52,969 nt of DNA from NCBI GenBank assembly GCA_009782175.1, contig WRKR01000019.1, positions 1 to 52,969 on the forward strand. The letters run 5' to 3'. A model generated the notes under the pieces. It searched no databases. It was not told the origin of the DNA and was given only the letters and a program-made list of their open reading frames with translations. Source of the DNA: Cystobacterineae bacterium (GTDB lineage: Bacteria; Myxococcota; Myxococcia; Myxococcales; Myxococcaceae). The position numbers were made by a program, and so were the translations under genes. Shown here piece by piece: positions 18,658 to 49,328 of this stretch (within the stretch, counting starts at the first letter, position 1; each line of letters starts with the position of its first letter).

Positions 18658-18697
18658 ATAGTTAGTGCTCCCGGGTGCTCCCGCAAGCTCTGTGGAC

Positions 18698-18759
18698 ATA
18701 CCAGCGTTTTGTTGGTATTTCTGTTGGTATCTTAAGCTTGGAAAAACTCGATACCAGCA
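18698..18759. promoter_or_regulatory. Putative integrase arm-type sites, left
   Basis: Four copies of an 8-9-bp motif occur: ATACCAGC (18698), TGTTGGTAT (18710), TGTTGGTAT (18722) and ATACCAGCA (18750). The middle pair is spaced exactly 12 bp, the same phasing as the pair at the right end (28284 and 28296). They lie between the tRNA and the integrase start, where arm-type or integrase/excisionase sites are expected. Confidence 0.6.
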
Positions 18760-18790
18760 AAATGAGGCCGGCAAAGCTCCCGGAGGCCGC

Positions 18791-19981: not shown

Positions 19982-20053
19982 TCTATGCAAGTCTATTGAC
20001 ATCTTGACAGCACCTGGTTTTTGCTTAGCCTGTTCACAGGAATAACGAGTTTT

Positions 20054-20121
20054 CCCCGGCTAGGAGCGGAATAGCTAACCGCACTGAAAAGCTGGCCTGA
20101 AAGCCTGCCGGGGTTTTTATT
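20054..20121 (+). ncRNA. Candidate structured leader RNA ending in a terminator
   Basis: CCCCGGC (20054-20060) pairs with GCCGGGG (20107-20113), followed by tttttatt. Inside, gcgg/ccgc (20066-20069 with 20079-20082) and ggc/gcc (20094-20096 with 20103-20105) form two small hairpins, giving a three-way junction. It ends about 30 bases before the GTG of the next gene, so it could be a small RNA or an attenuator of the element operon. I do not recognise a named family. Confidence 0.5.
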
Positions 20122-20148
20122 CAGGGGAGCCGCGTCAGGAGGGCAAGA

Positions 20149-21063: not shown

Positions 21064-21157
21064 GGACATCCCTTTTTGGTCCTCACACTCAAACACCTGC
21101 GTCCTCCAAGGTTGTGGCTGTCCAATTTTGGGCAACCAATCCTCGAGAGGAGCAAGA

Positions 21158-21367
21158 ATGTCGCAGTTGATTTCCCCGGAATACGTTCGAGTAAAGGTCT
21201 TGGCCGAATTGTTGGACTGTGGCGAGTCCACAATTTGGGCAAAAGTTAAAAATGGCCAACTCCCGCCACCCGCAGTGAAGCTTGGGCTGAGAACAACCCT
21301 GTGGCATTGGCCTTCTGTTCAACAATTTCTTCGAGCCAACAGCGCGCAAGCCACCAGCGAGAAGTGA
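21158..21367 (+). CDS. AlpA-like / excisionase-type small DNA-binding protein
   Basis: The 69-residue protein has the MerR/AlpA-like winged helix pattern: YVRVKVLAELLDCGESTIWAKVKNG, then PPPAVKLGLRTTLWHW. AlpA-type proteins in P4-like satellites act as transcription activators or excisionases. The ATG at 21158 follows AGAGGAG at good spacing. It lies between the unknown 304-residue gene and the DUF3987 gene on the same strand. A direct role in integrase control is inference. Confidence 0.85.
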   Translation: MSQLISPEYVRVKVLAELLDCGESTIWAKVKNGQLPPPAVKLGLRTTLWHWPSVQQFLRANSAQATSEK

Positions 21368-21410
21368 GGCGGCCCGCCATGAAAACGCAAAACCAGTGCA
21401 GGGGTGGCCT

Positions 21411-23420
21411 ATGAACGCCGTCCGTGAGCGCTGTTTAGACCTTCAGGAGCGGTTGTCCAGCACACGACAGGAGAACCGTGACAGCGTCCTGCGCGCCGCA
21501 TCCTTCGAATTCGGACAACTGGTTGTCGACGGCGCTCTTCCTGAAAGCAAGGCACGAGAGCTGCTTCTTAAAGGCGCGCAGGCCTGTGGCCTTGTGGAAG
21601 AAGACGGAGAGCACACCGCTGAAGAAGTCATTTCAAGCAACCTGGAGAGTGGAAAACAAAACCCACGCCAAACACTGGATCAGCTCGTTGGTGAGGAGAT
21701 TTCAAAGGGTGGCAACCAACACCTCCCTCCACCGCCACCTGTGCCTCTGAAGGCATTTCCGCCTCGAATAGCTGCTTTGCTGAACGAGGCCTCAGAGGCT
21801 TTCACCGTGCAACTGCAAATCCCCGCCGCTTGTCTCCTTGGCATGCTGTCGTGCCTCGTTGGAGGCACACGCCTTATCAGCCTAAGGCCCTCGTGGAAAG
21901 AGCCGGGCAACATTTGGATTGCCACGGTGGCTGCCTCCGGCATCGGCAAGACGCCATGCACGGCGGCATTTTTCAGGCCGATAAAAAACCTCGAGCATGA
22001 AGCACACAAGGCCTGGAAGGAGGGATATGCCGACTATGAAACAGAGCTTGAGCTGTGCAAAAAGCAACGCGCCAACGCCAAAAGCAGAGAAGACATGCCA
22101 GACAAGCCGACAGCCCCAAAGCAGCGGCAAGCCTGTGTTGATGACGCCACGGTGGAGGCCCTGGGCGAAGCGCTGGCAGACAACCCACGCGGCATTATGT
22201 GGCGGAAGGATGAGCTGTCCGGGTTGGTTTCTGACATGGACAAATACGCCGGTTCCGGCAGCGTGGGAGGCACACGCGCCAGGCTGCTTTCCTCCTATGA
22301 CGGCCAGGAGTGGAAGACAAGCCGCACCAGCAACCCTGCCCGCAATCTCTACATTCCGCATGCTTATGTTGGAATTTTCGGAGGCATTCAGCCCGTCATG
22401 TTGGCCAAAGTTTTTGAGACAGGCGCCACCGGGGTTGATGAGGCGTCCGGGTTTCTTCAGCGCTTCATGCTGATTCGTGCCGAGCGTGACAAGCCTTCCT
22501 ATTGGACAGAAAAAAGCCTGACTCAAAACTCCAAAGAGCTGCTTGAGTTTGTGTCGCGTGCTTTGTGGGCTTGGGACATTGAGCACGACGAAAATGACCG
22601 GCCTATTGAGAAAGTGGTTCTTGTTTCAGGCCAGGCAAAGGCGGCCTTTGTTGAGTGGTTCGATGGCATCGCCAAAGAAGAGTTCCTCTCACAAAATGCC
22701 GCACTGCTTTCCAAGCTGAAGGGGCAGGCACAACGGCTCTGCCTTTTGTTGCACTGCCTGGACGCGGCGCTTGCCGGCAACGACGGCATGCACCCAGTGA
22801 CTGAAGACACCATGCGCCGGGCCTTGCTTTTGGCCAACTGGATAAAAGAGCACCAGACACAATGTTGGCGGCTTTTCAGCCCAGGCAGGGCAAAGCAGGT
22901 TGACCCAGTGGAACGCGCCATCATGGCCGTTGTGGTGGACGAGGCTGTCAATATTGAGGCGGATGGGTGGCGCATAGAGTCGGCGCGCTTGCATGCCTTG
23001 GTGGAGCAGCAACTTGGCATGTCGGGGACACCCAAGGACACTGTGGCAAAGGCGGCCTCAAGGTTGGGCCTGGCTTCTTGCTGGATGAACAAGGGGCGGG
23101 CGCGAAAAGTTCCGCGTGATAAAATAGAATCCTTCAAAACAGCTGTAGTAGCTGTTGTTGCTGTTGTTGACCCAAGTAACAAAAGGGGAAAACCGACAAT
23201 GCCAGCTGTTGCACAGGTGTTGTCGGGTGTTGTTGCTTCAGCATGCACAACACCCAACGACAACAGCAACAACACCTCGACTACACCTGCTGTTGCCGAA
23301 AAAAATCTTAAAATTCAAGAGCAAACTACAGCAACAACAGCAACAACACCTGTTTCTAGGCTCAATTCTGAATTCAAGATCCCAGTCAAAAACAACTTAC
23401 CTGACCAGGTGGTGCTATGA
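21411..23420 (+). CDS. DUF3987-domain protein, probable element replication protein
   Basis: The 669-residue protein carries a DUF3987 region (about residues 100-500), common in phages, satellites and plasmids and often the C-terminal helicase-like part of primase-helicases. It has a P-loop-like motif AASGIGKTPCT, an acidic segment WRKDELSGLVSDMDKY resembling Walker B/sensor regions, and FGGIQP. No primase zinc finger or TOPRIM motif is visible. The N-terminal 70 residues and the Val/Thr-rich C-terminal tail (about 575-669) look non-conserved; the tail is encoded by gtt/aca triplet repeats. ATG 21411 follows AGGGGTGG. The next gene overlaps it by ATGA. A role in element DNA replication is inferred. 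Confidence 0.85.
   Translation: MNAVRERCLDLQERLSSTRQENRDSVLRAASFEFGQLVVDGALPESKARELLLKGAQACGLVEEDGEHTAEEVISSNLESGKQNPRQTLDQLVGEEISKGGNQHLPPPPPVPLKAFPPRIAALLNEASEAFTVQLQIPAACLLGMLSCLVGGTRLISLRPSWKEPGNIWIATVAASGIGKTPCTAAFFRPIKNLEHEAHKAWKEGYADYETELELCKKQRANAKSREDMPDKPTAPKQRQACVDDATVEALGEALADNPRGIMWRKDELSGLVSDMDKYAGSGSVGGTRARLLSSYDGQEWKTSRTSNPARNLYIPHAYVGIFGGIQPVMLAKVFETGATGVDEASGFLQRFMLIRAERDKPSYWTEKSLTQNSKELLEFVSRALWAWDIEHDENDRPIEKVVLVSGQAKAAFVEWFDGIAKEEFLSQNAALLSKLKGQAQRLCLLLHCLDAALAGNDGMHPVTEDTMRRALLLANWIKEHQTQCWRLFSPGRAKQVDPVERAIMAVVVDEAVNIEADGWRIESARLHALVEQQLGMSGTPKDTVAKAASRLGLASCWMNKGRARKVPRDKIESFKTAVVAVVAVVDPSNKRGKPTMPAVAQVLSGVVASACTTPNDNSNNTSTTPAVAEKNLKIQEQTTATTATTPVSRLNSEFKIPVKNNLPDQVVL
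23154..23347 (+). repeat. Complementary 16-nt triplet repeats in the DUF3987 tail
   Basis: GTTGTTGCTGTTGTTG at 23154-23169 is the exact reverse complement of CAACAACAGCAACAAC at 23332-23347, with other CAACAGCAACAAC copies near 23260. Transcripts could fold back here. It may simply reflect Val- and Thr-codon repeats. Confidence 0.7.
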
Positions 23421-23758
23421 GCGCGGCAACTCGCCTTGCAGGCATGGGGCTTGTCTTGAGTGTCTCCGGAGACAGGCGGGGGTTGGTCATTGAGGGCCTG
23501 CAGCAGCTGACTTATGAGGCCAGGGCTCGTGCCTTGCGTATAGCTAAAGAAAACAGGCTTCTCATTTTGGCAAAGTTAGGGAGGTGCGGTGGCGTGTTTT
23601 CAAACCCAGTGGTTTTACACTATCGCGCCAACTGCGAGCACTACCCGATGGGCTGCGAGGTTTGCCCGGACGCCAACCTTTCAAAATTAGACTTTTGCGG
23701 GCGCCATTCCGCGCCGAAGGTGGAGGAGGTTTTTGGTGAAGATTATTGTCGATTCTAG
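23417..23758 (+). CDS. Small Cys-rich hypothetical protein
   Basis: The 113-residue protein overlaps the previous stop codon (ATGA), so translation is probably coupled. The C-terminal half has clustered metal-ligand candidates: CEHYPMGCEVCP followed by DFCGRH, which could bind zinc. The N-terminal half is helical and Arg/Leu-rich. Its end overlaps the start of the ERCC4 nuclease gene by 23 bp. No family recognised; a nucleic-acid or nuclease partner role is possible from context only. Confidence 0.7.
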   Translation: MSAATRLAGMGLVLSVSGDRRGLVIEGLQQLTYEARARALRIAKENRLLILAKLGRCGGVFSNPVVLHYRANCEHYPMGCEVCPDANLSKLDFCGRHSAPKVEEVFGEDYCRF

Positions 23759-24257
23759 AGAGCAACTCGCATTCACATTTTCAGGGCGAAGGTATGCCGA
23801 GACAGCAATTGAAGTTGGCACCTTAGACACGGGGGACTATTCCCTTGCCGGACTCACCGACAAGGTAGCGGTAGAGAGGAAGAGCCTCGCTGACCTGGTG
23901 GCCTGCCTTGGCCATGGCCGGGAGCGCTTCGAGAAGGAGTTGCAAAGGGCGGCAGCCCTGGAGTCCTTCGCAGTGGTGGTGGAGGAGGCCTGGGCTGATT
24001 TGGCCATGGGGAATTACCGCTCACAGCTGAACCCCCACAGCGCTTGTCAAAGTGTCTTGGCCCTTATGGCGCGTCACCGCATTCCGTTTCTGTTCGCAGG
24101 AAGCCGGAGCCTGGCTGAGTACGCCACATGGGGGTTGCTGAAACAGTATTTGGAAGGTGCCCACAAACGACTGAACAACATCGTCAAGGCGCATGGGGAA
24201 GCCTGTAAACAACAGGGATTAAACAGAAAACCGAACGAAGCAGCAGTTGAGTTGTGA
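23736..24257 (+). CDS. ERCC4-domain nuclease
   Basis: The protein shows the XPF/Mus81-type nuclease signature spread over its first 55 residues: IIVDSREQ, then GDYSLAG, then VERKSLADLVACL (the GDX(n)ERKX3D motif). This fold cuts branched or flap DNA. At 173 residues it is a stand-alone nuclease domain without helicase or helix-hairpin-helix parts. GTG at 23736 has GGAGGAGG six to seven bases upstream, better than an adjacent TTG at 23733. Such small ERCC4 proteins occur in prophages; here it may process replication or recombination intermediates. Confidence 0.88.
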   Translation: MKIIVDSREQLAFTFSGRRYAETAIEVGTLDTGDYSLAGLTDKVAVERKSLADLVACLGHGRERFEKELQRAAALESFAVVVEEAWADLAMGNYRSQLNPHSACQSVLALMARHRIPFLFAGSRSLAEYATWGLLKQYLEGAHKRLNNIVKAHGEACKQQGLNRKPNEAAVEL

Positions 24258-24282
24258 ACCTATTTTTAAAGGAGATGTGACA

Positions 24283-25086
24283 ATGGCTGATTATAGCTGT
24301 CCGACCGAGGCCCAGGTGTTTGAGCTGCAATTCGAGAGGCTGCTTTCGCGTATGCGCTTCATTCTTCCAGGCATAGTGATGGCATTTAGCACGGACGACA
24401 AACGCCCCCGTTGCTCTGTCATGCCGGCCACAAAATATAAGCAAACCTTGGGCGAGAAGGTTACGTATTACGCCTTCCCTGAGCTGCAAAACGTCCCCGT
24501 GTGCGTGCCTTGCGTGCCGGGGGTTGGGCTTCTTACCTTGCCTATTAAACCAGGCACCAAGGGTATTCTGGTTTTCTCTGACCGCTCTATTGAGGAGTTT
24601 GTGCAGACGGGTAGGCCTGGGCTGCCTGACCCCCCTGGAGGGGACTTCACCATAACACCTCGGCAGCACTTCCTAAGCGACGCCATTTTCATTCCTGGAA
24701 TTATTACCAACGTAGATACCGTGCCCGACTGGCACCCGGACAATATTGAGTTGAGGGACTACAAGAGGCAGCATTATTTGAGCATAGGTGCAGACGGCAT
24801 CACCATGAGCGATGGGCAGGCGACGTGGAAAATGAGTGGAGGGGGAGTGACGCTGGAGGCTCCTTCTGGCATTAAACAAACCGACGGAGCCGCAACTTGG
24901 GGCTTATCTGGCGGGGCCTCTTCGTTAAGCTCGTCAAATGCGACTATTTCAGCTGCTGGAATAACAACTACTGGCAATGTTGCTGCTACCGGGGGCACCG
25001 TCAGTCTTTCGGCGCATGTGCATACCCATGTTACGCCTGGAAGCGAGGAGCAGGTTTCTGGCCCTCCTCTAACGCCGGGAGGTTAA
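24283..25086 (+). CDS. Gp138/gpV-like phage spike protein
   Basis: The 267-residue protein resembles baseplate spike proteins of contractile-tailed phages (Gp138 N-terminal OB-fold, gpV group): an N-terminal OB-like domain (about 1-130; LPGIVMAFSTDDKRPRCSVMPA, then PCVPGVGLLTLPIKPGTKGILVFSDRSI), a Gly/Ser/Thr repeat stretch consistent with a beta-helical stalk, and the His-rich tip AHVHTHVTPGSEEQVSGPP seen in gpV-type spikes. ATG 24283 has AAGGAG upstream. It is the only recognisable virion gene in the element, which is odd for a full prophage. Confidence 0.85.
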   Translation: MADYSCPTEAQVFELQFERLLSRMRFILPGIVMAFSTDDKRPRCSVMPATKYKQTLGEKVTYYAFPELQNVPVCVPCVPGVGLLTLPIKPGTKGILVFSDRSIEEFVQTGRPGLPDPPGGDFTITPRQHFLSDAIFIPGIITNVDTVPDWHPDNIELRDYKRQHYLSIGADGITMSDGQATWKMSGGGVTLEAPSGIKQTDGAATWGLSGGASSLSSSNATISAAGITTTGNVAATGGTVSLSAHVHTHVTPGSEEQVSGPPLTPGG

Positions 25087-25091
25087 CGGGC

Positions 25092-25592
25092 ATGCCAAGG
25101 TTTAAACCAGGCCAGAGCGGCAACCCTGCCGGCAGGAGAAAGGGAAGCATCAACCGCCAACTTGCAGCGCTCAGGGAGGTATCTGACAAGGTTCTTCCTT
25201 TGGTGACGAAGAAGGCTCTGGCTGGAGACTTCGATGCTCAAAAGCTGATTTTGGAGCGAGCTTTGCCGCGCATGAAGGCATTGAGCCCTCCTGAGGCTTT
25301 CAGCTTGCCTGAAGGGGACTTGCTCAGTCAGGTGCAGGCGGTGCTTCGGCAGGTGGCGGCGGGGGAGCTTTCTCCAACTGTTGCTGCCGAGGTAGCCAGC
25401 GTGGCTGCATCCATTGCCCGAGTGAAGGAGGTAGACATTCAAGCGCGACAGCCGCAAATGACACAGGCAGACTGCGAGAGGTTCGCAAGGGAAAGGCTGG
25501 CAGAGCTTCGGGCGAGGAGAAAGGCAGAGGAAGAAGAAGCAAAGAAACGAGAGGATGAGGAGGACGGAGGAATAAATGTCGATATTGAATAG
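25092..25592 (+). CDS. DUF5681-domain protein
   Basis: The N-terminus KPGQSGNPAGRRKGSINR is the hallmark of DUF5681, found in many phage genomes next to terminase genes. Residues about 40-110 are helical (VLRQVAAGELSPTVAAEVA), and the C-terminus is a highly charged coil (ARRKAEEEEAKKREDEEDG). At 166 residues it may be a DNA-packaging or small-terminase-like accessory; this is inference from neighbourhood in other phages. GGGAGG lies about nine bases before ATG 25092. It overlaps the next gene by 17 bp. Confidence 0.8.
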   Translation: MPRFKPGQSGNPAGRRKGSINRQLAALREVSDKVLPLVTKKALAGDFDAQKLILERALPRMKALSPPEAFSLPEGDLLSQVQAVLRQVAAGELSPTVAAEVASVAASIARVKEVDIQARQPQMTQADCERFARERLAELRARRKAEEEEAKKREDEEDGGINVDIE

Positions 25593-25869
25593 AGCTAAAA
25601 AAGAAACAGAGTCATGGATGGAGTATGCGACTGAGCAGGTGTCATATATAGCCTCAATGCGCTTTCTGCTGGATGAGGGGAAGCCCAGGCAGTTTGCCTG
25701 GGTGTTGGCCGTTGAGGCCCTTAACAGAGAAACTGGGGCCTCTTGTCTGGTTTCGGCAGATGATTGGGTTGACGGTAAGGTTAAGGAAGCCAGGAAAAAA
25801 AACCTCAACTTCACGGAAGAGCTTATTTTTCTGCGGGATGCTTGGAGGTGCTACTCCCGCCCCATTTAA
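25576..25869 (+). CDS. Small hypothetical protein
   Basis: The 97-residue protein starts at an ATG with GGAGG eight bases upstream, inside the 3' end of the DUF5681 gene. It is soluble, with Trp/Tyr-rich helices (ESWMEYATEQVSYIASMRFLL, then ADDWVDGKVKEARKK). No family recognised. It ends the first plus-strand operon of the element; the next gene is on the opposite strand. Confidence 0.7.
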   Translation: MSILNRAKKETESWMEYATEQVSYIASMRFLLDEGKPRQFAWVLAVEALNRETGASCLVSADDWVDGKVKEARKKNLNFTEELIFLRDAWRCYSRPI

Positions 25870-25896
25870 GGCGCAAGAGCAGTTCCGGCCACTTCA

Positions 25897-25920
25897 ACCG
25901 GTGACAAATTGTTGCCGGTT
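25897..25920. promoter_or_regulatory. Palindrome between the converging satellite operon and BRO gene
   Basis: AACCGG-TGACA-aat-TGTTG-CCGGTT forms an 11-bp stem with two G-T pairs. Its core GGTGACA-N3-TGTTGCC resembles the perfect GGTGACA-N3-TGTCACC at 26624-26640 within the BRO gene. No T-run follows on either strand, so it looks more like a binding site than a terminator. Unproven. Confidence 0.4.
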
Positions 25921-26006
25921 GACTGCCTCCTCCCTTAGGCGCCATGCCAACATGCATATGCATCGCATGTGCACTACTTCCCCCCTCCCTTTGTGGCTCC
26001 ATGGAG

Positions 26007-26825
26007 CTATTCGTCCAGGGATGGCAAGCTTTTTCCTGTCACCACCTTCTGCCCGGTGCGTTGCTCCAACTCTTCCCGGGCCTTAAGGGCAATGCCGCCG
26101 CCCGCTTTGCCGGCTTCTGCATTCTCTTCAAGCCCGGTGGCATTCACGCTTTGCGCTATTTGCCGAGTAGAAAGCTCCGCCAGGGCCGTGAAAATCAGCT
26201 CTGCTTCGGACATATGGTCTCTCAGGTTTTGGGTGTTCAGCTCCTTCAACGCTTTGTGCTCTTTGACGCTTAGGCCTGTCCATTCTTCGTGGATGAGGTT
26301 GGTGAGAATGGCATATTCTAGGCCCTCTTTCACGCCGTGCTCTTTCCAGTAGTCCGTCAGCTTGTTCCGGGTTTCCTGGCCAAGCATGCGCTGCTCTATC
26401 CACTTCTCTGAGCGGCCGTGCTTTTGCCACAACTCGCGAGAGCGGTTTAAGGCGATTTCGGGGTCAGCCATTTCCTTCATGCGCTCATGGCCAACCTTGG
26501 CGAGCCAAAGCTTGATGGGCTCAGCCTTGGGGCTCGGCACAGACTGCACCAGGCGCAAGAGGGTTGGGGCGTCGGCGACGTCGGTGAAATATTTCTTGCC
26601 ATCTCCGGCAGTTAGCTTCAGTCGGTGACAGTTTGTCACCACCTCGCTCCCCTCTTTTTTCAGGCGCTCTTTCAGCTTGTTCCAATATTTGCGAGCCGCC
26701 TGGAAGTCCAGTTGCCCCGTCAACACCTGCACAATGTCCACCACGGAGAAAAACCAAGTTTCTGTCTTCTCGTCATAGACGCGGCGAATATTCTTTCCTT
26801 CAAAAACAGCCATGCCTTTTTTCAT
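26007..26825 (-). CDS. BRO-N domain protein, antirepressor/DinD-like
   Basis: The 272-residue protein starts with a BRO-N domain (about residues 5-105; NIRRVYDEKTETWFFSVVDIVQVLT, then YFTDVADAPTLLRLVQSVPSPKAEPIKLWLA split by a loop). BRO domains are DNA-binding modules of phage antirepressors and of DinD-like DNA-damage-inducible proteins. The second half (AMILTNLIHEEWTG-type region and AELSTRQIAQ) matches the DinD-like chromosomal group. AGGAGG six bases before ATG 26825 sets the start. It runs opposite to the rest of the element and diverges from the c4-like RNA region, placing it at the genetic switch. Confidence 0.88.
   Translation of the reverse strand: MKKGMAVFEGKNIRRVYDEKTETWFFSVVDIVQVLTGQLDFQAARKYWNKLKERLKKEGSEVVTNCHRLKLTAGDGKKYFTDVADAPTLLRLVQSVPSPKAEPIKLWLAKVGHERMKEMADPEIALNRSRELWQKHGRSEKWIEQRMLGQETRNKLTDYWKEHGVKEGLEYAILTNLIHEEWTGLSVKEHKALKELNTQNLRDHMSEAELIFTALAELSTRQIAQSVNATGLEENAEAGKAGGGIALKAREELEQRTGQKVVTGKSLPSLDE
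26624..26640. promoter_or_regulatory. Perfect GGTGACA-N3-TGTCACC palindrome inside the BRO gene
   Basis: A 17-bp perfect dyad lies within coding sequence for VVTNCHRL. It could be an operator-like site related to the imperfect copy at 25900-25916, or chance. Confidence 0.3.
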
Positions 26826-26984
26826 GTGCTTCCTCCTTTTGGCGTGGCCCCTTTGTCCAAGCACCCCTGCCATGCTCGGGGCACTCTAATGGTTGGCACA
26901 CAACACCACAACAGACGAATAACCAACTTGTTTTGTTCACGTTGAACCCCTCATTGCCAACCTCAGCCAGTTTTGTTAGAATGT

Positions 26985-37290: not shown

Positions 37291-37338
37291 GTGGTCCGCG
37301 CCTGACGGGAAACAAGTTGCCCCATGACGAGGAACACA

Positions 37339-38979
37339 ATGAAGACGACACAACCCATAGCCCCTTTAGAAACGACGCCCCCGCCCATTCCCCGGAAAAC
37401 CGTGCATGCTGCCTTAAGGCCATTAAGCCGCGTGCCTGAGCCTTTGTCGCTGTTTGCGCGGTTGAGCGATGACGGCCGACGGCCATATATGGTTTTGCTG
37501 GAGTCGGCGGAAGCCTCAAGTCGGAAAACCCAGAAAAGTCTGCTGGTGGTTTCCAGCGCTTTGTCGGTGGAGTGTAGAGGAGCGGAGGTGGTGTTAAGAG
37601 CGTTAAATGCGCAAGGAGAAGCGCTGCTGCCCATGCTTGAGGCGCATTTTGAGCGTTTTTCTCCACGCCTTGAAGGGCAGCTTTTGCGTCTGCGCGTGCC
37701 CGTCTATGGGGCAGCGGAGAAGACGACATCCGAAGAGGAGCGTTTGAAGGCGGATTCCTCGCTGACGGTGCTGCGTGAATTGGCGGCGCTGCTTCGTACG
37801 GCCTTGCCATCCATGCCGGAGGCGGTGTTTCTCTGCGGCATGTTTTCCTATGACTTGGTGGAGCAATTTGAGCCGCTGCCAAAAGCTGCGCAGGAGAATT
37901 GCTTTCCCGACTATTTTTTCTATTTGGCTGACCGGATGATTGAGGTTGACCACTTGAGCTCTTCTGGCCACATGTTGGCCTGCACGTTTGCGGCAGAAAA
38001 TGACCAGCGGGCGATAGAGGAAACCGAGGTGGCGCTTGCGGAGATGGAAAAAGCCATATCCATTTCTGAAGGAGAATTGTTGGTGGGTATAGGCGAAGAA
38101 GCAACACTTGACGCAGTCAAAACGGATATGGACGATGCTGTTTTTGCTGCGCAAGTGGACACTTTGAAAAAGCACATTGTTTGCGGAGATGTATTTCAAA
38201 TTGTCCTCTCGCGGACATTTTCCATGCCCTGCACGCATCCATTTAAGGCCTATCGCGCATTGCGCAAGCTGAACCCGAGCCCCTATCTCTTCTATCTGCG
38301 GCACAATGACTTTGCTTTGTTTGGCGCATCGCCGGAGTCTTCGGTGAAAGTGGATGGCACAACACGCCGCGTTGAAATTTCACCCATTGCTGGAACTCGC
38401 CGCCGCGGCTTTCGTGAGGACGGCAGCATAGACTTCGACTTCGATAGCCGCATTGAAGCCGAATTGCGGCTTGATGAAAAAGAAAACGCTGAGCATATGA
38501 TGTTGGTAGACTTGGCGCGAAATGACGTGGCGCGCGTATCCAAACCGGGGACACGCCATGTCACCAATTTATTGCGCACCGAGCGCTATTCGCACGTGAT
38601 GCATTTGGTGTCGCGCGTATGCGGTGAATTGAAAGACGAGTTTGACGCGCTGCATGCCTACCAGGCGAGCATGAATATGGGAACGTTGACGGGGGCGCCC
38701 AAAATTAAGGCGATGCAGTTGTTGCGTCACTATGAAGGCGGGCGGCGGGGGCACTATGGAGGGGCCATCGGCTATTTTCGAGGTGACGGCAGTTTTGACA
38801 CAGCGATCGTCATTCGGGCGGCACTGGTGCAAAACGGTGTTGCGCATATTCGCGCGGGAGCCGGCGTTGTGAATGACTCGGTGGCGCTTTTGGAGGCGGA
38901 TGAAACCCGGAGGAAGGCGGAGGCCGTATTAAGGGCAATAGCATTGGCGGAAGCAAACCAGGAGGAAACCCATGTTTAA
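37339..38979 (+). CDS. trpE: Anthranilate synthase component I
   Basis: TrpE turns chorismate and ammonia into anthranilate, first step of tryptophan synthesis. The 546-residue protein keeps the tryptophan feedback site VLLES plus the downstream SSA/LLVVSS region near residue 50-80, and the chorismate-binding core: DVFQIVLSR, FGASPES, ISPIAGTRRRG, DLARNDV, SGAPK-like MNMGTLTGAPKIKAM and IRAGAGVVNDS. ATG 37339 has GAGGAA upstream; an ATG at 37324 is also in frame. It overlaps trpG by 8 bp, implying translational coupling. Confidence 0.97.
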   Translation: MKTTQPIAPLETTPPPIPRKTVHAALRPLSRVPEPLSLFARLSDDGRRPYMVLLESAEASSRKTQKSLLVVSSALSVECRGAEVVLRALNAQGEALLPMLEAHFERFSPRLEGQLLRLRVPVYGAAEKTTSEEERLKADSSLTVLRELAALLRTALPSMPEAVFLCGMFSYDLVEQFEPLPKAAQENCFPDYFFYLADRMIEVDHLSSSGHMLACTFAAENDQRAIEETEVALAEMEKAISISEGELLVGIGEEATLDAVKTDMDDAVFAAQVDTLKKHIVCGDVFQIVLSRTFSMPCTHPFKAYRALRKLNPSPYLFYLRHNDFALFGASPESSVKVDGTTRRVEISPIAGTRRRGFREDGSIDFDFDSRIEAELRLDEKENAEHMMLVDLARNDVARVSKPGTRHVTNLLRTERYSHVMHLVSRVCGELKDEFDALHAYQASMNMGTLTGAPKIKAMQLLRHYEGGRRGHYGGAIGYFRGDGSFDTAIVIRAALVQNGVAHIRAGAGVVNDSVALLEADETRRKAEAVLRAIALAEANQEETHV

Positions 38980-39580
38980 GCCGCACATTCTCTTCATTGA
39001 CAATTTTGACTCCTTCACCTTCAACCTTGTCGACGCCCTCTCCCTGCTTGGCGCCGAAGTTGACGTATACCGAAACGACATGAATGCTGAGGCGCTGCTG
39101 GACATTGCGCTGAAAAAGCATTCGGCGCTGATTGTGTTGTCACCAGGGCCTGGGGCGCCGCGCGAAGCCGGCTGCATGCTCAAGTTAATTCAGAAAGCGG
39201 CGGGGAAGGTGCCCCTGTTTGGCGTATGTTTGGGGCACCAGGCAATTGCGGAGGCCTTCGGTGGAAGTGTCGGCGCTGCGAAAGAAATAGTGCATGGAAA
39301 AAAGTCTCGCATAAAGCATTTCGGGCACCCGTTGTTTTCGGGGCTTTCGAAGAGTTTCGACGTCGGTCGCTACCACTCCTTGGCGGTGCAAGCATTGCCG
39401 GAGGCCTTCGAGGTTATTGCGCGTGGCGTTGAAGACGAGGGGTTAATCATGGCCTTGGCGCACCGCTCTTTGCCGATTTATGGCGTTCAATTCCACCCCG
39501 AGTCCATTTTGACAACCTATGGACAAATTATTTTGAACAATGTTTTTCAGTTGGCGCTGGAAGCGGAAGTGAGGAAATAA
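38972..39580 (+). CDS. trpG: Anthranilate synthase component II (glutamine amidotransferase)
   Basis: TrpG supplies ammonia from glutamine to TrpE. The 202-residue class I amidotransferase has the nucleophile Cys in GVCLGHQAI, the HGKKSRI segment, and His/Glu of the triad in QFHPESILT. AGGAGG precedes the ATG. It is not fused to trpD or trpE. Overlaps trpE and lies four bases before trpD. Confidence 0.96.
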   Translation: MFKPHILFIDNFDSFTFNLVDALSLLGAEVDVYRNDMNAEALLDIALKKHSALIVLSPGPGAPREAGCMLKLIQKAAGKVPLFGVCLGHQAIAEAFGGSVGAAKEIVHGKKSRIKHFGHPLFSGLSKSFDVGRYHSLAVQALPEAFEVIARGVEDEGLIMALAHRSLPIYGVQFHPESILTTYGQIILNNVFQLALEAEVRK

Positions 39581-39584
39581 GAAA

Positions 39585-40631
39585 ATGGTGAACCGCATTT
39601 TAAGCAAGCTATTAACCGGAGGGCGGATGGAGCGGGAGGAGAGCCGCGTGCTTTTCGACGCCGTCATCCGCGGGGAGCTTGGCGACGTAGAAATGACAGC
39701 CTTGTTGGTGGCGCTGAAGCTGCGCGGCGAAACCGCCGAAGAAATTGCCGGCGCAGCCCAGGCTTTGCGCGAAGGCGCGCGCGAGTTTCCACGTCCCGAC
39801 TATGCTTTCGCCGACATTGTCGGCACCGGCGGCGACGGTGCCAACACCATTAATATTTCGACGGCGGTTACTTTTGTGGCAGCAGAGGCGGGGTTGCCGG
39901 TTGCCAAGCACGGCAACCGTGCGGCCTCGTCACGTTGCGGCGCTGCGGATTTGCTCGAGCGTTTTGGCGTCAAACTTGACATGGAGCCGGCAACGGCGCG
40001 GCGTTTGCTCGACGACATTGGTGTGACTTTTCTCTATGCGCCGCACTACCACAAAGGCATCCGCCATGCCATGCCTGTGCGCAAGGTGCTGGCCACGCGG
40101 ACAATGTTTAATTTGTTGGGGCCACTGGTGAACCCTTCCAGGCCTCCCATTATGCTGGTTGGCGTCTATGACTATATGCTGTGCACATTGGTGGCGGAGA
40201 CGTTGAAGCTTTTGGGTTGTGAGCGCGCCCTGGTGGTGAATGGTTTGGGCCTTGACGAAATTGCGGTGCACGGTGAAACCAATGCCGCCGAATTGCGTGA
40301 CGGAGAAATTCGGACGCACCGCTTCACCCCCAGCGACTTTGGCGTACGCGAATTCCCCTTGTCCTCCATTGTTGGCGGCAGCCCGGAGGAAAACGAGCAG
40401 GCCATTCGTTCCACATTAGGCGGGGGAGGAGATGAAGCCCACGCGGCGGCAATAGCCGTCAACGCGGGGGCCCTTTTGGCACTGGGCGGGAAGGTGAATT
40501 CCTTCAAGCAGGGTTTTGAGATGGCAATGGCCATTTTGGAAAGCGGCAAAGCCCTTAAAAAATTGGAGGCGATGGTGAAGTTGTCCAAGCAATGCGAGGA
40601 AACGGAGGGCAGGCATGTCGCTGCTTTCTGA
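39585..40631 (+). CDS. trpD: Anthranilate phosphoribosyltransferase
   Basis: This enzyme joins anthranilate to PRPP. The 348-residue protein shows the PRPP-binding GTGGDGANTINIST, KHGNRAASS, and the family's ATRTMFNLLGPLVNP block and GLDEIAVHG. Usual length. The SD lies in the end of trpG. It overlaps trpCF by 17 bp. Confidence 0.97.
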   Translation: MVNRILSKLLTGGRMEREESRVLFDAVIRGELGDVEMTALLVALKLRGETAEEIAGAAQALREGAREFPRPDYAFADIVGTGGDGANTINISTAVTFVAAEAGLPVAKHGNRAASSRCGAADLLERFGVKLDMEPATARRLLDDIGVTFLYAPHYHKGIRHAMPVRKVLATRTMFNLLGPLVNPSRPPIMLVGVYDYMLCTLVAETLKLLGCERALVVNGLGLDEIAVHGETNAAELRDGEIRTHRFTPSDFGVREFPLSSIVGGSPEENEQAIRSTLGGGGDEAHAAAIAVNAGALLALGGKVNSFKQGFEMAMAILESGKALKKLEAMVKLSKQCEETEGRHVAAF

Positions 40632-42006
40632 AATTGTTCAGCGCAAACGAAAGGACGTTGCCACGCGCATTGCGCAAACGCCGTTTGACGTATTAAAAAA
40701 ACAAGCAAAGCCCACAACGCGTCGCTTGAGTGAAGCGCTCAAAAAACCTGGGCTTCGCTTCATTCTCGAATGCAAAAAAGCCTCTCCTTCAGAGGGACTT
40801 CTCCGCGCAGACTTTGACGCAAAAAAAATTGCAAAAAGCTATGCCGGTTTTGCCGATGCTGTTTCTGTGCTCACCGACACGCCCTATTTCCAAGGCAGCT
40901 TTGAAAATTTGGAAACGGTGCGCGACGCACTCTCTCAGCCCATTTTGTGCAAAGACTTTATTGTGGAGCCATACCAAATATTCGAAGCGCGCATTCACGG
41001 TGCCGATGCGGTGCTTCTCATGTTGTCCGTCCTCGACAACGCAAGCTATCGCCTTTGCGCGCAGGCAGCGGAGGCGCTTTCCATGGAGGTGTTGACAGAA
41101 ATCCACGACGAGGAGGAGTTGTCCAGGGCCCTGGCGCTGGGTGCGAACATAATTGGCATCAACAACCGAAACTTGAAAACCATGCAGATAGACTTATCCA
41201 CAACGCAGCATTTGGCGCCCAAAATTCCCAAAGACAAAGTGCTGGTGTGCGAATCCGGAATAAAAAGCCGCGCTGACATTGACGCGCTTAGCGGCTTTGT
41301 CGATGCTTTTTTGGTTGGAAGTTGTCTCATGAAAGAAGCGCGGCTTGACTTGGCGGTGCGCTCGTTAATTTTTGGCCACGTCAAAATATGTGGACTGACG
41401 ACGGCGGAGGCGGCGCGTGCGGCCTATGAAGCAGGGGCCTCTTTTGGCGGGCTGATTTTCGCACCAGAGTCTTTGCGCCTTGTGAGCGAAGCGAAGGCGC
41501 ACGAAATTGCCAACGCTTCGCCTTTGCCGATGGTGGGCGTTTTTGTCAACGAGGCGCCAGAGCGTATTGTGCGCCTTTCACGGGAGTTGAGCCTTGCGGC
41601 CATTCAGCTGCACGGCGAAGAGACGCAAAGCGATGTACACAACTTGCGAGAAAAGCTTCCCAAAGGAACAGAAATTTGGAAGGCCCTTCGTATAAAAGGG
41701 GAGGCCCCTCCCACGGAGGCGGCGCTGGCGCAGACGGGGGCGGATTGTTTTTTGTTGGATGCCTTCCACCCTTTGGCGCGTGGTGGCACAGGAGAGTGTT
41801 TTGACTGGGGGTTGCTTGGACAACTTCCGAAGCCATTGCTGTCTCGCATAATAATTGCTGGCGGCATAACTTTGGAGAATGTGCAGGAGGCGCAGCGTTT
41901 GGGGGCCTATGCGGTGGACGTCAATTCCGGCCTGGAGTTGGTGCCGGGGAAGAAGGACTTGGCGGCCATACAAGGTTTGTTTTCTCGTTTGAGAGGAATG
42001 CTATGA
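40615..42006 (+). CDS. trpCF: Bifunctional indole-3-glycerol-phosphate synthase / phosphoribosylanthranilate isomerase
   Basis: One 463-residue chain carries two TIM barrels. TrpC (about 1-253) has [32 protein letters not shown] and GINNRNLKT. TrpF (about 254-463) starts [12 protein letters not shown] with the catalytic Cys and has QLHGEE and the Asp in LLDAFHPL. The order of isomerase and synthase activities is TrpF then TrpC in the pathway. Fused trpCF is typical of enterics but sporadic elsewhere. Overlaps trpB by ATGA. Confidence 0.96.
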
Positions 42007-43208
42007 GCACAGTTTTTTTCACACCAGAGCCATTAAATATTGAAGAGGGCGCCTTCGGCCCATTTGGCGGCATGTTTGTGCCGGAAATTTTGGTGCCCAC
42101 CTTGAAAGAGTTGGCGCGCGCTTTTGAAGAAGCCCAAAAAGACGCTGCATTCCAGCAGGAGCTTAAGGCGCTGCTCAAAGAATATGCCGGCCGTGAAACG
42201 CCGCTTTATTGTTGCCGCAACCTGGCAGCGGGGACGAGGGCGACAATATATTTGAAGCGGGAGGACTTGTTGCATGGCGGCGCGCACAAGACAAACCAAG
42301 TGTTGGCTCAGGCCCTGTTGGCAAAGCGTATGGGGAAGAGGCGGCTTATAGCCGAGACAGGCGCAGGGCAACATGGCGTAGCAACGGCGCTGGCGGGGGC
42401 TTTGTTTAAAATGGAAACGCGCATTTATATGGGCGAAAAGGACATGAAGCGCCAGGCGTTGAATGTGTTTAGAATGCGTCTCATGGGTGCCGAGGTGGTG
42501 CCCGTGCAAACGGGCAGCGGCACCTTGAAAGACGCCGTCAACGAAGCCTTGCGCGACTGGTCCGCAAGCTATGAGAGCACCCACTACCTCCTGGGGACTG
42601 CCGCGGGTCCGCACCCTTTCCCCACCATTATACGCGAATTTCAGCGCGTCATCGGCCGCGAGGCAAAAGCGCAAATTCTGGAGAGGGAAGGGCGGCTGCC
42701 CGACGCGGCCATTGCCTGCGTTGGCGGCGGCTCCAACGCCATTGGTTTATTCGCCGACTTCATTGACAACCCGGAAGTGCGTCTCATTGGCGTCGAAGCG
42801 GCGGGGCACGGGCTGCACACGGGAAAACATGGCGCCACTTTGCAGAAGGGACGCCCTGGCATTTTGCATGGCAGCTATAGCTATGTCTTGCAAGACGCGC
42901 ACGGGCAAATAGCAGAGTCTCACTCCATTTCCGCCGGCCTTGACTACCCGGGCGTTGGCGCCCAGCACGCCCACCTCTATACCACCGGCCGCGCCGAATA
43001 TGTAGGAGTGAGCGACGAGGAAGCACTCGAAGCCTTCCAACATTTGGCGCGTGAAGAGGGAATTATTCCGGCATTGGAGTCTGCACATGCCATTGCCCAT
43101 GCGTTGAAGCTGGCAAAAGCCAGCACGCAGCCGCAAGTGTTGTTGGTTTGCTTGTCCGGGCGCGGCGACAAAGACGTGGAGCATATAACGCAGCACATAC
43201 GTTTTTAG
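42003..43208 (+). CDS. trpB: Tryptophan synthase beta chain
   Basis: The PLP enzyme condenses indole with serine. Lys96 in GGAHKTNQ binds PLP; the phosphate loop is GGGSNAIG and the family signature [15 protein letters not shown] is present in pieces. The 401-residue length is normal for TrpB1. The ATG overlaps the trpCF stop. It channels indole from TrpA encoded 14 bp downstream. Confidence 0.98.
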
Positions 43209-43222
43209 AGAGGGAGAATTCG

Positions 43223-44050
43223 ATGGAAGACAATTTAAAGCAGAAGGCCACGCGTTATGAGGCAATGTTTTCCCGCTTAAGCGAGAGAGGGGAGGGCGCC
43301 TTCATTCCTTTCGTCATGTTGGGGGATCCAAGCCTCGATACGAGCATGGAAATAATGGACACACTCATAGAGAGTGGCGCCGACGCCTTGGAGTTAGGCA
43401 TTCCGTTTTCGGACGCTGTTGCCGACGGCCCCGTCATTCAGAAGGCAAGTTTTCGCGCCCTGGAGGCGGGGGTGACGCCAGCGCACTGTTTTGGGTTGCT
43501 AAGGCGCATTCGGGAGAAGCACCCAAAGTTGCCGCTGGGGCTGCTCATTTATGCCAACCTCATTCTGGCCAAAGGCATAAAGGCATTTTATGCGGAGGCG
43601 GCCGAAGCGGGGGCGGACTCCATATTGGTGGCGGACATACCGGTGGGGGCGGCGGGGCCGTTTATAGAGGCGGCAAAGGCAGCAGGGGTGGCCCCCGTAT
43701 TTGTGGTGCCGCCCAATGCGGACGAGGCCACAGTCCGTGAAATTGCGAGGCATGGGCGTGGCTATAGCTATTTCCTCGGCCGCTCCGGCGTCACCGGCGC
43801 CGACAGAGAGATGCAGACGCCGTTGCCCGCGCGCTTTAAGGCTTTGCAGGAAGCGGGGGCAGCTCCAGCGGTTGTAGGCTTTGGCATTTCAACACCCAAA
43901 CACATTCGCACGGCGCTTGAGGCCGGTGCGGCCGGAGCCATTGCCGGCTCCGCGACGGTAGCCATTATAGAGAAGCACATAGGCAACAAAGCCGCCATGC
44001 ATGAAGCACTGGCGGCTTTTGTGAAGGAGATGAAAGCGGCGACGCGCTGA
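43223..44050 (+). CDS. trpA: Tryptophan synthase alpha chain
   Basis: TrpA cleaves indole-3-glycerol phosphate. The catalytic Glu lies in ALELGIPFSD and the Asp in AVADGP, and the phosphate site includes GRSGVTGA and VGFGIS. The 275-residue length is normal. ATG 43223 has GAGGGAG upstream. It ends the operon and converges on ilvA with a 137-bp gap full of TGACA/TGTCA dyads. Confidence 0.97.
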   Translation: MEDNLKQKATRYEAMFSRLSERGEGAFIPFVMLGDPSLDTSMEIMDTLIESGADALELGIPFSDAVADGPVIQKASFRALEAGVTPAHCFGLLRRIREKHPKLPLGLLIYANLILAKGIKAFYAEAAEAGADSILVADIPVGAAGPFIEAAKAAGVAPVFVVPPNADEATVREIARHGRGYSYFLGRSGVTGADREMQTPLPARFKALQEAGAAPAVVGFGISTPKHIRTALEAGAAGAIAGSATVAIIEKHIGNKAAMHEALAAFVKEMKAATR

Positions 44051-46924: not shown

Positions 46925-47485
46925 ATGAATGTTCAAATTCGCCCGTGGAAAACAGAGGATGCCTCAGACTTGGTTGAGGTTATCAACAATAAAAAAATTC
47001 AGGACAATCTCCGAGACGGCATTCCATATCCTTATATGCACAAAGACGCGGAAGATTTTATTCGCACCACATTGGGCGCTGACAAGGATAAGTCATATGC
47101 GTTTGCCATAGAATATGACTTTAAAGCCATTGGATGTATTGGGATTTTGCGACAAGGCAACATCCACCGTCTCAGCGGTGAGCTGGGTTATTATATTGCC
47201 GAGCCTTATTGGGGCAAGGGGCTGATGACCGAGGCGATTGGGCAAATGTGTGCCTATATTTTTGAGCATACGGATATTATTCGCATTTTCGCGCAACCTT
47301 TTGACTTAAACCATGCTTCATGCCGTGTTCTGGAAAAAACAGGGTTTCAACTTGAAGGCATTTTGCGCAAAAACGCCATTAAAAACGGGGAAGTGGTGGA
47401 TATGAGGAGCTATGCTTTGATTCGGCCTTCCATGAAAACGGCAGGGCGAGAAAAGAGGCTTGCCTCTGGGGAAAAACCCTGCTAG
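46925..47485 (+). CDS. GNAT acetyltransferase (RimJ/RimL type)
   Basis: The 186-residue protein has the GNAT fold: IRPWKTEDASDLVEVINN at the start, ELGYYIAEPYWGKGLMTEAI with the acetyl-CoA pyrophosphate loop (WGKGLM), and the closing ASCRVLEKTGFQLEGILRKN block typical of RimJ/RimL and ribosomal or small-molecule acetyltransferases. Substrate unknown. The ATG is in a weak SD context. A hairpin terminator follows the stop. It precedes rplC, but no link is shown. Confidence 0.9.
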   Translation: MNVQIRPWKTEDASDLVEVINNKKIQDNLRDGIPYPYMHKDAEDFIRTTLGADKDKSYAFAIEYDFKAIGCIGILRQGNIHRLSGELGYYIAEPYWGKGLMTEAIGQMCAYIFEHTDIIRIFAQPFDLNHASCRVLEKTGFQLEGILRKNAIKNGEVVDMRSYALIRPSMKTAGREKRLASGEKPC

Positions 47486-47493
47486 GTGGCCTG

Positions 47494-47516: not shown

Positions 47517-47602
47517 AAATAGCCCGGCAGAATGCTGCCCGCACCTCCAGCCTTGCGCTGTGTGCGTTTGAAGAAGGCTTTGGCCTTCAAAGGAAGAGAA
47601 AC

Positions 47603-48268
47603 ATGAAGGGCCTTGTGGCAAAAAAAGTAGGAATGACACAGGTGTTTGACGCCAATGGCATACGCATTCCCGTAACCGTGTTGGATGCCAGCAGCTGCAT
47701 GGTAGTGGGCAAACGCACCCTCGAGAGGGATGGCTATAGCGCTGTTATTCTGGGCTTTGGAGAAATTCGAGAAAAACTGCTCAACGGGCCACGCAAAGGC
47801 CTTTTTAAAAAGGCGGGTGTTTCCCCCAGGCGCACCCTGCGCGAGTTTCGCATAAGCCCGGAGGAAGCAGCCAGCATGGAAATAGGAAAGCCCGTTTCCA
47901 TAGAAATGTTTGCCCAGGGAGACTGGGTGGATGTGTCAGGTGTCAGCAAAGGCCGCGGCATGCAAGGCGTTGTGCGGCGCTGGCATTTTGCCGGCTTCTG
48001 CCAAACACACGGCACCCACGAATACCGCCGCCACCCCGGTGCCATTGGCCAACGCAAAACCCCAGGCCGCGTCCACCCCAATAAAAAACAACCCGGCCAC
48101 ATGGGCGCCACCCACATAACCACCCAAAACCTCAAAGTGGTTGAAATAATAGCCGATCGCAACCTCATTTTGCTCAAAGGCGCCGTCCCCGGACACACCA
48201 ACGGCCTGGTGTGCCTGCGCCCCTCCATTAAGCTTGCACAAAAACAGGCAAGGGCCTCAAAACGCTAA
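47603..48268 (+). CDS. rplC: 50S ribosomal protein L3
   Basis: L3 binds near the 3' end of 23S rRNA and helps shape the peptidyl-transferase centre. The 221-residue protein starts MKGLVAKKVGMTQVFD and has the central loop THGTHEYRRHPGAIGQRKTPGRV (quoted in parts), followed by GHMGATHITTQNLKVVEI and ILLKGAVPGHTNGLV. The Gln in GAIGQ corresponds to the site methylated by PrmB in other bacteria. ATG 47603 has AAGGAAGAG upstream. Unusually it is alone: rpsJ and rplD, normally its neighbours, are absent here. Confidence 0.95.
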   Translation: MKGLVAKKVGMTQVFDANGIRIPVTVLDASSCMVVGKRTLERDGYSAVILGFGEIREKLLNGPRKGLFKKAGVSPRRTLREFRISPEEAASMEIGKPVSIEMFAQGDWVDVSGVSKGRGMQGVVRRWHFAGFCQTHGTHEYRRHPGAIGQRKTPGRVHPNKKQPGHMGATHITTQNLKVVEIIADRNLILLKGAVPGHTNGLVCLRPSIKLAQKQARASKR

Positions 48269-48569: not shown

Positions 48570-49328
48570 ATGAGTGAAATGAAAGTTACAGCTTCACCCC
48601 AGCCGTTTACTTCAGGGGATCGAGCAAAGGCTGCTGGTGAGAAGCCCCTCTCTGTAGAAGTTTTAAAAGGCTTGAACAAACCCCAGGCTACGGAACAGTC
48701 CAATCAGATAAAAGACGTATTTGAGTCAGGCAACACACAAGGGGCCAAAGAGGCAGGGCTTAACAACGGCAAGCAATATCAGTTTTCCAGCAACGGTACC
48801 CCCTGCTATTCCAAGGAAGACATTTCCTTGGGCAATAAAATGGGCTCGGACAAGAGCAGTGACAGGCTTGGAACCGGAACCTCCGCCGCGGCCATGGCAC
48901 TGAGTAAAATTTCCGGGCAGCTCATTGAGCCCGACCAGGTTTTGGAGAAACTGGGGAGCAACTCAAAGGTAGACTTTAACAAGGCGGCGGGGATGGTGGG
49001 GATGCAAGCGCACTCTTCTGACAACATGGATTGGTCGGCCATGGATAAGGAGTTGGCTGCCGGACGCCCGGTGGTTCTCGGTGGAGATTTCAACGACAAC
49101 GGCGACTCAGACTATTATGTCACCGTGACGCGCAGAGAAGGCACCACCTATTTTGCGAATGATCCTTTGACGGGCAAAGAAATGAAAATGACGGAGAACG
49201 ACAGCAATAGGCTGGAGGGCAAAACCGCTGACGGCAAAACCCTTACTGCCGGCAACGAACTCATTCGCTTCTCCGGCGGCAACCCCAACCCCGGGAATAC
49301 GCCGCCCTCTAGGCCCTATGGGCAATAG
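48570..49328 (+). CDS. C39-like peptidase fold lacking catalytic residues
   Basis: The 252-residue protein has a polar N-terminus (about 1-70) and a domain resembling peptidase C39_2 (about 75-225). Where active members read GCGPTSAAMAL, this one has GTGTSAAAMAL, so the Cys is replaced by Thr. Where they have a His before the VVVTG strand, this one has DSDYYVTVTRREGTTYFANDPLTG, without His. One Cys (NGTPCYS) lies about 20 residues earlier and is not in the motif position. It is therefore probably a non-catalytic binding protein. No signal peptide. AAGGAG precedes the ATG. C-terminus Pro/Gly-rich. Confidence 0.75.
   Translation: MSEMKVTASPQPFTSGDRAKAAGEKPLSVEVLKGLNKPQATEQSNQIKDVFESGNTQGAKEAGLNNGKQYQFSSNGTPCYSKEDISLGNKMGSDKSSDRLGTGTSAAAMALSKISGQLIEPDQVLEKLGSNSKVDFNKAAGMVGMQAHSSDNMDWSAMDKELAAGRPVVLGGDFNDNGDSDYYVTVTRREGTTYFANDPLTGKEMKMTENDSNRLEGKTADGKTLTAGNELIRFSGGNPNPGNTPPSRPYGQ

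What the first reader, a model, noticed from the sequence alone, without database searches (positions are those of the whole stretch)
47603..48268. Stand-alone rplC outside the S10 operon
L3 is nearly always flanked by rpsJ and rplD. Here it lies between an acetyltransferase and a C39-like gene, with its own SD. It is either a relocated single copy or a second copy (paralog, possibly altered ribosomes).
Basis: partly seen in the sequence, partly recalled or inferred. Interest (0 to 1): 0.52.

Follow-up and report, generated by a model that had tools for sequence, protein, structure and literature searches.

The report
Lone L3 gene with candidate RNA leader
The gene for ribosomal protein L3 left its ancient operon long ago in the myxobacteria and their relatives, and in many of them, this one included, it now follows a small conserved RNA hairpin that may let L3 control its own production.

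Summary
Confirmed: window 47603-48268 (+) is a complete bacterial L3 gene (TIGR03625, 253.5 bits) with no ribosomal neighbours. It is the only L3 in a 99.95%-complete assembly. On another contig the S10 operon runs rpsJ-rplD-rplW-rplB with a 6-nt rpsJ-rplD gap and no rplC.

This is no oddity of one genome. Of Myxococcota loci read here, 113 of 113 rplC loci with adequate flanks lack S10-operon neighbours and 57 of 57 S10 clusters have rpsJ next to rplD; 62 of 62 other bacterial loci keep rpsJ-rplC-rplD.

More novel is the leader. A hairpin at 47540-47566 (outer stem, CNC bulge, inner stem) covaries. Its covariance model, run on 60 whole genomes, gives 15 strongest hits that all lie just upstream of rplC, 7 in genomes not used to build it. 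Rfam and the searched papers show no L3 leader. I read it as a candidate autoregulatory L3 leader. Binding by L3 is inferred, not shown; resemblance to 23S helix H96 is only suggestive. Several clades lack a recognisable copy.

The parts
47603..48268 (+). rplC, ribosomal protein L3 (uL3), 221 aa, only copy in the genome
47540..47566 (+). candidate L3 leader hairpin: CGCAC-CUC-[CAGC-cuugc-GCUG]-U-GUGCG (outer stem, CNC bulge, inner stem, single pyrimidine, outer stem)
   Evidence: present in the minimum-energy fold of 47520-47610
47538..47573 (+). match of covariance model R1, 44 bits, E 9.7e-9 in the own genome (a training sequence); next best in the genome E 0.15
47591..47596 (+). Shine-Dalgarno-like AGGAAG
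   Evidence: sequence
47460..47488 (+). tentative promoter TTGCCT-N17-TAGGTG; the pattern cTTGnC...TGCTA lines up with the same-genus and Myxococcaceae rplC upstream regions
   Evidence: alignment; NOT found by the sigma-70 consensus scan, so tentative
46925..47485 (+). upstream neighbour: GNAT acetyltransferase (not part of the system)
48570..49328 (+). downstream neighbour: 252-aa protein, no Pfam or NCBIfam match (not part of the system)

Best explanation
rplC left the S10 operon before the sampled Myxococcota lineages diverged, most simply once, and has since been a stand-alone single-copy gene whose surroundings change from clade to clade; in this genus it lies between a GNAT gene and an unknown gene. 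Cut off from control of the S10 operon, it is regulated on its own: in many clades its upstream region carries a conserved hairpin (outer stem closed by C-G, a CNC bulge, an inner stem, one unpaired base on the 3' side) that ends roughly 10-50 nt before the start codon. Most likely free L3 binds this hairpin and blocks translation initiation on its own mRNA, as other ribosomal-protein leaders do. Shown: the location, single copy, lineage-wide displacement, the hairpin's covariation and its position ahead of rplC. Inferred: one displacement event, transcription from its own promoter, L3 as ligand, repression of translation.
For: Displacement: 113 of 113 Myxococcota rplC loci with >=300 bp on both sides have no S10/L4/L23/L2 within 3 kb (6 of 119 loci set aside for short flanks; some loci come from the same genome); 57 of 57 S10-L4 pairs have a gap <150 nt; 62 of 62 Clostridia/Actinobacteria/E. 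coli loci are in the order S10-L3-L4. Shared new neighbourhood across classes: TPR1 in 30 loci and TPR2 in 26 loci of the 205 searched, all same strand and downstream of rplC. L3 tree: 44 Myxococcota rows on one side of a branch, 89/90 support, the window with Myxococcaceae. Leader: 41 of 101 distinct upstream regions fit a descriptor vs shuffle mean 4.75, max 10 in 40 shuffles, and 2 of 61 in-operon controls; with A also allowed at the 3' single base 53 of 101 vs mean 6.85; later-fetched regions 18 of 31 vs mean 2.59, max 7 in 100 shuffles. Covariation in 8 sequences: 98.6% cells paired, 6 of 9 pairs with double changes, 0 of 500 shuffles. Model R1 on 60 genomes: the 15 best hits (E<=6.1e-5) all sit 16-36 nt before the L3 match on its strand, 7 in genomes not used for the model (against coordinates). 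Model R2 on 40 later-fetched 0.6-kb regions: 9 hits, the best 8 at the expected place.
Against: No experiment or transcript data. The hairpin is not universal: 48 of 101 and 13 of 31 regions do not fit; the Myxococcus/Corallococcus clade and family f11 have no convincing copy, so an ancestral leader in the whole lineage is unproven. Sequences in A3 and A4 were picked by eye or descriptor, so their pairing percentage is partly circular. The sigma-70 promoter scan finds nothing ahead of rplC. Resemblance to 23S H96 is weak statistically: summed longest shared words 100 vs shuffle mean 87.7, maximum of 200 shuffles 100. The window's leader folds only slightly better than shuffles (z -1.59). The closest outside phyla were not sampled, so the age of the displacement is open. 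Five of 156 genomes gave no L3 and four gave two matches.
Confidence: 0.68

Rival explanations
1. The hairpin is a real rplC-specific regulatory element, but its ligand is not L3: another ribosomal protein, a small RNA, or folding alone (mRNA stability, thermosensor) sets rplC expression.
For: Nothing here tests the ligand. The H96 resemblance is weak.
Against: No other S10-operon gene lies near rplC in the loci read, and Eckert & Weinberg state that in all known r-leaders the ligand is encoded by a regulated gene (PMC7247131, section 7).
Confidence: 0.22
2. The hairpin is a chance or compositional feature of GC-rich intergenic DNA and rplC simply has a constitutive promoter.
For: About half the upstream regions lack it; GC-rich DNA forms hairpins easily; part of the alignment selection is circular.
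Against: 15 of 15 top hits in 60 genomes lie ahead of rplC, 7 of them held out; 14 weaker hits are scattered; real counts exceed every shuffle; 0 of 500 column shuffles reach the covariation score.
Confidence: 0.04
3. Xenologous displacement: the native rplC in the S10 operon was lost and replaced by a foreign L3 gene elsewhere.
For: The first non-Myxococcaceae rows were Clostridium (about 52% identity); displacement by transfer would explain loss from the operon without an intermediate.
Against: In the tree the 44 Myxococcota L3s form one side of a branch (89/90) with deep splits and do not nest in Clostridia or Actinobacteria. An ancient donor outside the 17 outgroup rows cannot be excluded.
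Confidence: 0.12
4. A second, paralogous rplC, or a chimeric contig.
For: None found.
Against: One L3 in the genome, rpsJ-rplD gap 6 nt, same arrangement in separately assembled relatives.
Confidence: 0.01

Closest known systems
Ribosomal-protein leaders (r-leaders), e.g. the 20 leaders of Eckert & Weinberg 2020 (PMC7247131); the L4 leader of the E. coli S10 operon is recalled
   Same: Structured, covarying element found consistently ahead of a ribosomal protein gene; a single downstream r-protein gene, so the ligand can be guessed by the 'Only' rule of that paper.
   Different: Table 1 of that paper has no leader with L3 as ligand; its only entry listing rplC is the archaeal L4 leader. No Rfam match.
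Standard bacterial S10 operon (rpsJ-rplC-rplD-rplW-rplB...)
   Same: The other genes of its 5' part are present in order.
   Different: rplC is absent from it and lies elsewhere in all Myxococcota loci read.
nfs (necessary for sporulation) locus of Myxococcus xanthus, Mxan_3371-3378 (PMC2875238, passages)
   Same: In Myxococcaceae the genes after rplC include beta-barrel-like genes, a TPR protein and a large second TPR protein on the same strand, which fits the order and sizes of nfsA-D in Table 3 of that paper.
   Different: Identity with nfs is inferred from order, size and type; the DK1622 nfs sequences were not compared. The window's genus lacks these neighbours.

Membership tests
bacterial ribosomal protein L3 (TIGR03625) | score over curated cut-off across the full model | tested here: met
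   253.5 bits, cut-off 142.9, model 1-202 of 202
S10-operon rplC | located between rpsJ and rplD | tested here: not met
   own rpsJ-rplD gap 6 nt, rplC on another contig
ribosomal-protein leader | conserved secondary structure supported by covariation | tested here: met
   6 of 9 pairs with double changes, 0/500 shuffles; (selection partly circular)
ribosomal-protein leader | consistently upstream of ribosomal protein genes and rarely elsewhere | tested here: met
   15 of 15 strongest hits in 60 genomes ahead of rplC; later-fetched regions
ribosomal-protein leader | lies within the transcribed 5' UTR | not testable with these tools
   no transcript data; promoter scan negative, conserved promoter-like pattern upstream
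ribosomal-protein leader | bound by the r-protein and represses its mRNA | not testable with these tools
   needs binding and reporter assays
r-leader that mimics rRNA (L3 / 23S H96) | resembles the protein's rRNA site | tested here: inconclusive
   the 23S hairpin after the sarcin-ricin loop has a CNCUG or CNCUA loop in most genomes read; shared-word test borderline. That L3 touches H96 is recalled; passages read place yeast Rpl3 on H95 and domain VI
previously described RNA family (Rfam 15) | match to a family model | tested here: not met
   only a chance-level REN-SRE (E 1.5) and a His_leader-like hit at E 0.13 in L228 at 1767-1867, not at the hairpin

The most novel reading that the evidence does not exclude
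A previously undescribed L3-binding r-leader, a partial copy of the apical loop of 23S helix H96, arose when rplC left the S10 operon in the ancestor of the Myxococcota and took over control of rplC there; the displaced gene plus its own feedback leader is an inherited rewiring of ribosome synthesis in a whole phylum.
Probability: 0.4. Interest if true: 0.75.

Novelty: new member of a known kind. Interest (0 to 1): 0.6.

Why it matters
The S10 operon is one of the most conserved gene orders in bacteria. A lineage-wide loss of rplC from it gives a natural test of how coordinated ribosomal-protein synthesis survives the break-up of an operon. The hairpin gives a concrete answer to test: an L3 feedback leader, a ligand that the r-leader table I read does not list. 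It also warns that pipelines that assume rpsJ-rplC-rplD linkage fail in myxobacteria.

Tried and rejected
Second copy of L3: rejected, one match in the genome. Chimeric contig: rejected. Peculiarity of a reduced genome: rejected, large Myxococcus-type genomes show the same. Recent transfer from Clostridia: not supported by the tree. Descriptor without the closing C-G rule: 37 of 108 vs shuffle mean 14.4, too loose; I tightened it after seeing these data, before the counts I cite, so only the later-fetched regions are a fresh test of it. Known Rfam leader: none. rRNA mimicry as proof of the ligand: kept only as suggestive, because the shared-word test was borderline and several genomes (f10, f29, most f11) show no excess; the word CCNCTG within 70 nt of the start occurs in 36 of 132 Myxococcota regions (shuffle mean 13.6) but also in 18 of 61 controls, so the bare word is no evidence. 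Alignments A1 and A2 misplaced the f3 rows and were not used for models. A terminator or attenuator ahead of rplC: the scan gives nothing on the + strand there. Rows dropped: loci with short flanks (6 of 119); upstream regions shorter than 70 nt or without a recognised start; 9 of 40 regions without a recognised start, which I then read by eye (several show related but variant hairpins, not counted). Genome rows of R1 with filters: over 40 genomes the tool uses stricter filters, so weak true copies may be lost (for example L023 of G003 scores 27.8 bits but is not listed).

Full report
OBSERVATION. Window 47603-48268 (+) encodes a full-length L3 (221 aa) that passes the NCBIfam model TIGR03625 with 253.5 bits. 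It starts with ATG behind AGGAAG. The window is the complete contig C19 of a 2.70-Mb, 65-contig assembly rated 99.95% complete.

COPY NUMBER AND S10 OPERON. A whole-genome search finds one L3. The S10 operon lies on contig C21 and reads rpsJ, rplD, rplW, rplB, rpsS, rplV, rpsC; rpsJ and rplD are 6 nt apart. The second genome of the genus, G002, also carries rplC alone on its own contig with different neighbours and its rpsJ and rplD are 6 nt apart. The third, G001 (94% complete, 230 contigs), has the same 6-nt rpsJ-rplD gap but no L3 was found in it; an assembly gap is my guess.

HOW WIDE. The rplC contig of G002 is, by length and match, the record 'Cystobacterineae bacterium isolate Emb289P3bin65'; the next relatives are recorded as Corallococcus, Pyxidicoccus, Myxococcus and Hyalangium, with one row labelled Comamonas. 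That such bins come from termite guts is recalled, not from a call. I compared rplC and rplD coordinates in relatives and in 156 genomes of the phylum. 151 of 156 have an L3; five have none; four have two matches, of which one pair (G011) is two pieces of one gene and the second matches of the other three were not listed. I then read loci: of 119 Myxococcota rplC loci (some from the same genome), 113 have at least 300 bp on both sides, and none of these 113 has S10, L4, L23 or L2 within 3 kb; all 57 S10-L4 pairs read have gaps under 150 nt; all 62 control loci from Clostridia, Actinobacteria and E. coli keep S10-L3-L4. The nearest case is G160, where rplC lies about 5 kb from the S10 operon on the other strand. 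Among relatives of G167 (the 'uncultured proteobacterium' of L129), all 30 loci returned have L3 alone; the tool does not tell whether G167 belongs to the same phylum, and I count these loci under Myxococcota only as likely relatives.

WHERE IT WENT. Downstream of rplC, on the same strand, 46 loci have a beta-barrel-like gene, 30 a TPR gene and 26 a second large TPR gene, among 205 loci searched (PF13505 and TPR by Pfam). These loci come from Myxococcaceae, from other families of the order and class, and from families f11, f17 and f18 elsewhere in the phylum, which points to one shared new site. In M. xanthus the order and sizes fit nfsA-D, whose upstream gene is Mxan_3370 with a different expression pattern (PMC2875238, passages); that Mxan_3370 is rplC is my inference. 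The window's genus and several families have other neighbours, so the gene moved again or its surroundings changed.

INHERITANCE. In a tree of 61 L3 proteins the 44 Myxococcota rows form one side of a branch (89/90) and the window groups with G002 (100/99) next to Myxococcaceae. This speaks against recent transfer from Clostridia or Actinobacteria; an older donor outside the 17 outgroup rows is not excluded.

THE LEADER. Aligning upstream regions showed a hairpin before rplC: outer stem closed by C-G, bulge CNC, inner stem that begins with a pyrimidine-purine pair, loop, one unpaired base, outer stem. In the window it is CGCAC-CUC-[CAGC-cuugc-GCUG]-U-GUGCG at 47540-47566 and is part of the minimum-energy fold. 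Descriptor test: 41 of 101 distinct Myxococcota regions fit against a shuffle mean of 4.75 (maximum 10 in 40 shuffles) and 2 of 61 in-operon controls; with A allowed at the 3' unpaired base 53 of 101 against 6.85. Of 40 regions fetched afterwards, 31 had a recognised start and 18 of these fit, against 2.59 (maximum 7 in 100 shuffles); six of the 40 came from genomes in which model R1 had already found the element. Covariation in eight family f1 sequences: 98.6% of cells paired, 6 of 9 pairs with changes on both sides, no shuffle of 500 as high; in 21 sequences of several clades 99.5% and 50 double-change cells, no shuffle of 500 as high on those measures, though the number of pairs with any double change (7) was reached by 168 of 500. 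These rows were chosen because they fit, so I lean on the next test instead.

SPECIFICITY. A covariance model of the eight sequences (R1) run on 60 whole genomes gave 29 hits up to E 0.01. The 15 best (E 1.8e-9 to 6.1e-5) all end 16-36 nt before the L3 match on the same strand; 8 are training genomes and 7 are not (G004, G006, G011, G018, G023, G027, G033). The other 14 (E 6.6e-4 to 9.6e-3) lie elsewhere (coordinates of rplC). In the own genome the second-best hit has E 0.15. On 100 loci R1 also finds L023 (G003, not in training) ahead of rplC at E 1.2e-4; weaker hits there are scattered. A broader model (R2) on the 40 later-fetched regions gave 9 hits, the best 8 at the expected position and strand; 5 of those 8 genomes had R1 hits before.

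WHAT IT MAY COPY. The 23S hairpin that follows the sarcin-ricin loop (E. coli 2677-2691, H96 by recall) has the loop CNCUG or CNCUA; in 23 of 32 sequences (31 from the phylum and E. coli) my script found a stem of at least 3 pairs around such a loop, one of them (L316) at another place. Leaders share words with it, for example CGCACCTC in G020 and ACCGCTG in G043, but summed over 17 genomes the shared words (100) only equal the maximum of 200 shuffles (mean 87.7), and several genomes show no excess. Passages of two yeast papers place Rpl3 on H95 and domain VI (PMC9508819; PMC4671574). I treat mimicry as a lead.

KNOWN OR NEW. I read sections 3, 5 and 7 of Eckert & Weinberg 2020: none of their 20 leaders has L3 as ligand; I did not see their supplementary list of 35 earlier leaders. 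In PMC11109978 I saw only passages by search term; its main text does not name rplC. Searches for an L3 or rplC leader returned nothing beyond the Eckert paper and its citers, and searches aimed at rplC displacement in myxobacteria returned no paper on it in their listings. The library lacks most subscription journals. Rfam 15 has no match at the hairpin.

MECHANISM. Most likely L3, when in excess over rRNA, binds the hairpin and hinders initiation at the nearby ribosome-binding site. That is one way r-leaders work in general (PMC7247131, section 3), but nothing here tests binding. Limits: about half of the upstream regions have no recognisable copy, including the Myxococcus/Corallococcus clade and family f11; a promoter is only suggested by an alignment and not by the consensus scan.

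Noticed in passing
window 37324-44050: A trp-like run of ORFs (identities recalled from their sequences: trpE, trpG, trpD, a 463-aa trpC-trpF-like fusion, trpB, trpA), followed on the other strand by a threonine-dehydratase-like gene; not checked with a tool.
   Followed up: no
window 18665-26873: An integrase-like ORF (18665-19981) followed by DNA-handling and phage-type ORFs; looks like an integrated element. Not checked with a tool.
   Followed up: no
window 10128-13787 and 44-832: A long Cys-rich repeat protein on the minus strand and a repetitive ORF at the contig start; repeats may explain the contig end.
   Followed up: no
L174 (G160) 3049-9519: Only locus where rplC lies close (about 5 kb, opposite strand) to the S10 operon; G160 was also scored with two L3 matches, the second not listed.
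   Followed up: partly
L174-L180 (families f24-f29): A variant hairpin before rplC (GGGAC-CAAC or CUAC ... UGY-GUCCC) that the descriptor does not count; FHA and TonB-domain genes lie near rplC in several of them.
   Followed up: partly
L287-L294 (family f5): Strongly conserved block GGCACGTCCTCC...CGGCGGACCAATGCGAGGT between a TTGAC-type promoter pattern and rplC; a possible further leader form.
   Followed up: partly
L066-L082, L006-L020 (Myxococcus/Corallococcus clade): A different conserved upstream block (TTGCGCCGCTTCC..., CATTGGGTTTT, then a GCGC hairpin and GTGAGGACGAC before a GTG start).
   Followed up: no
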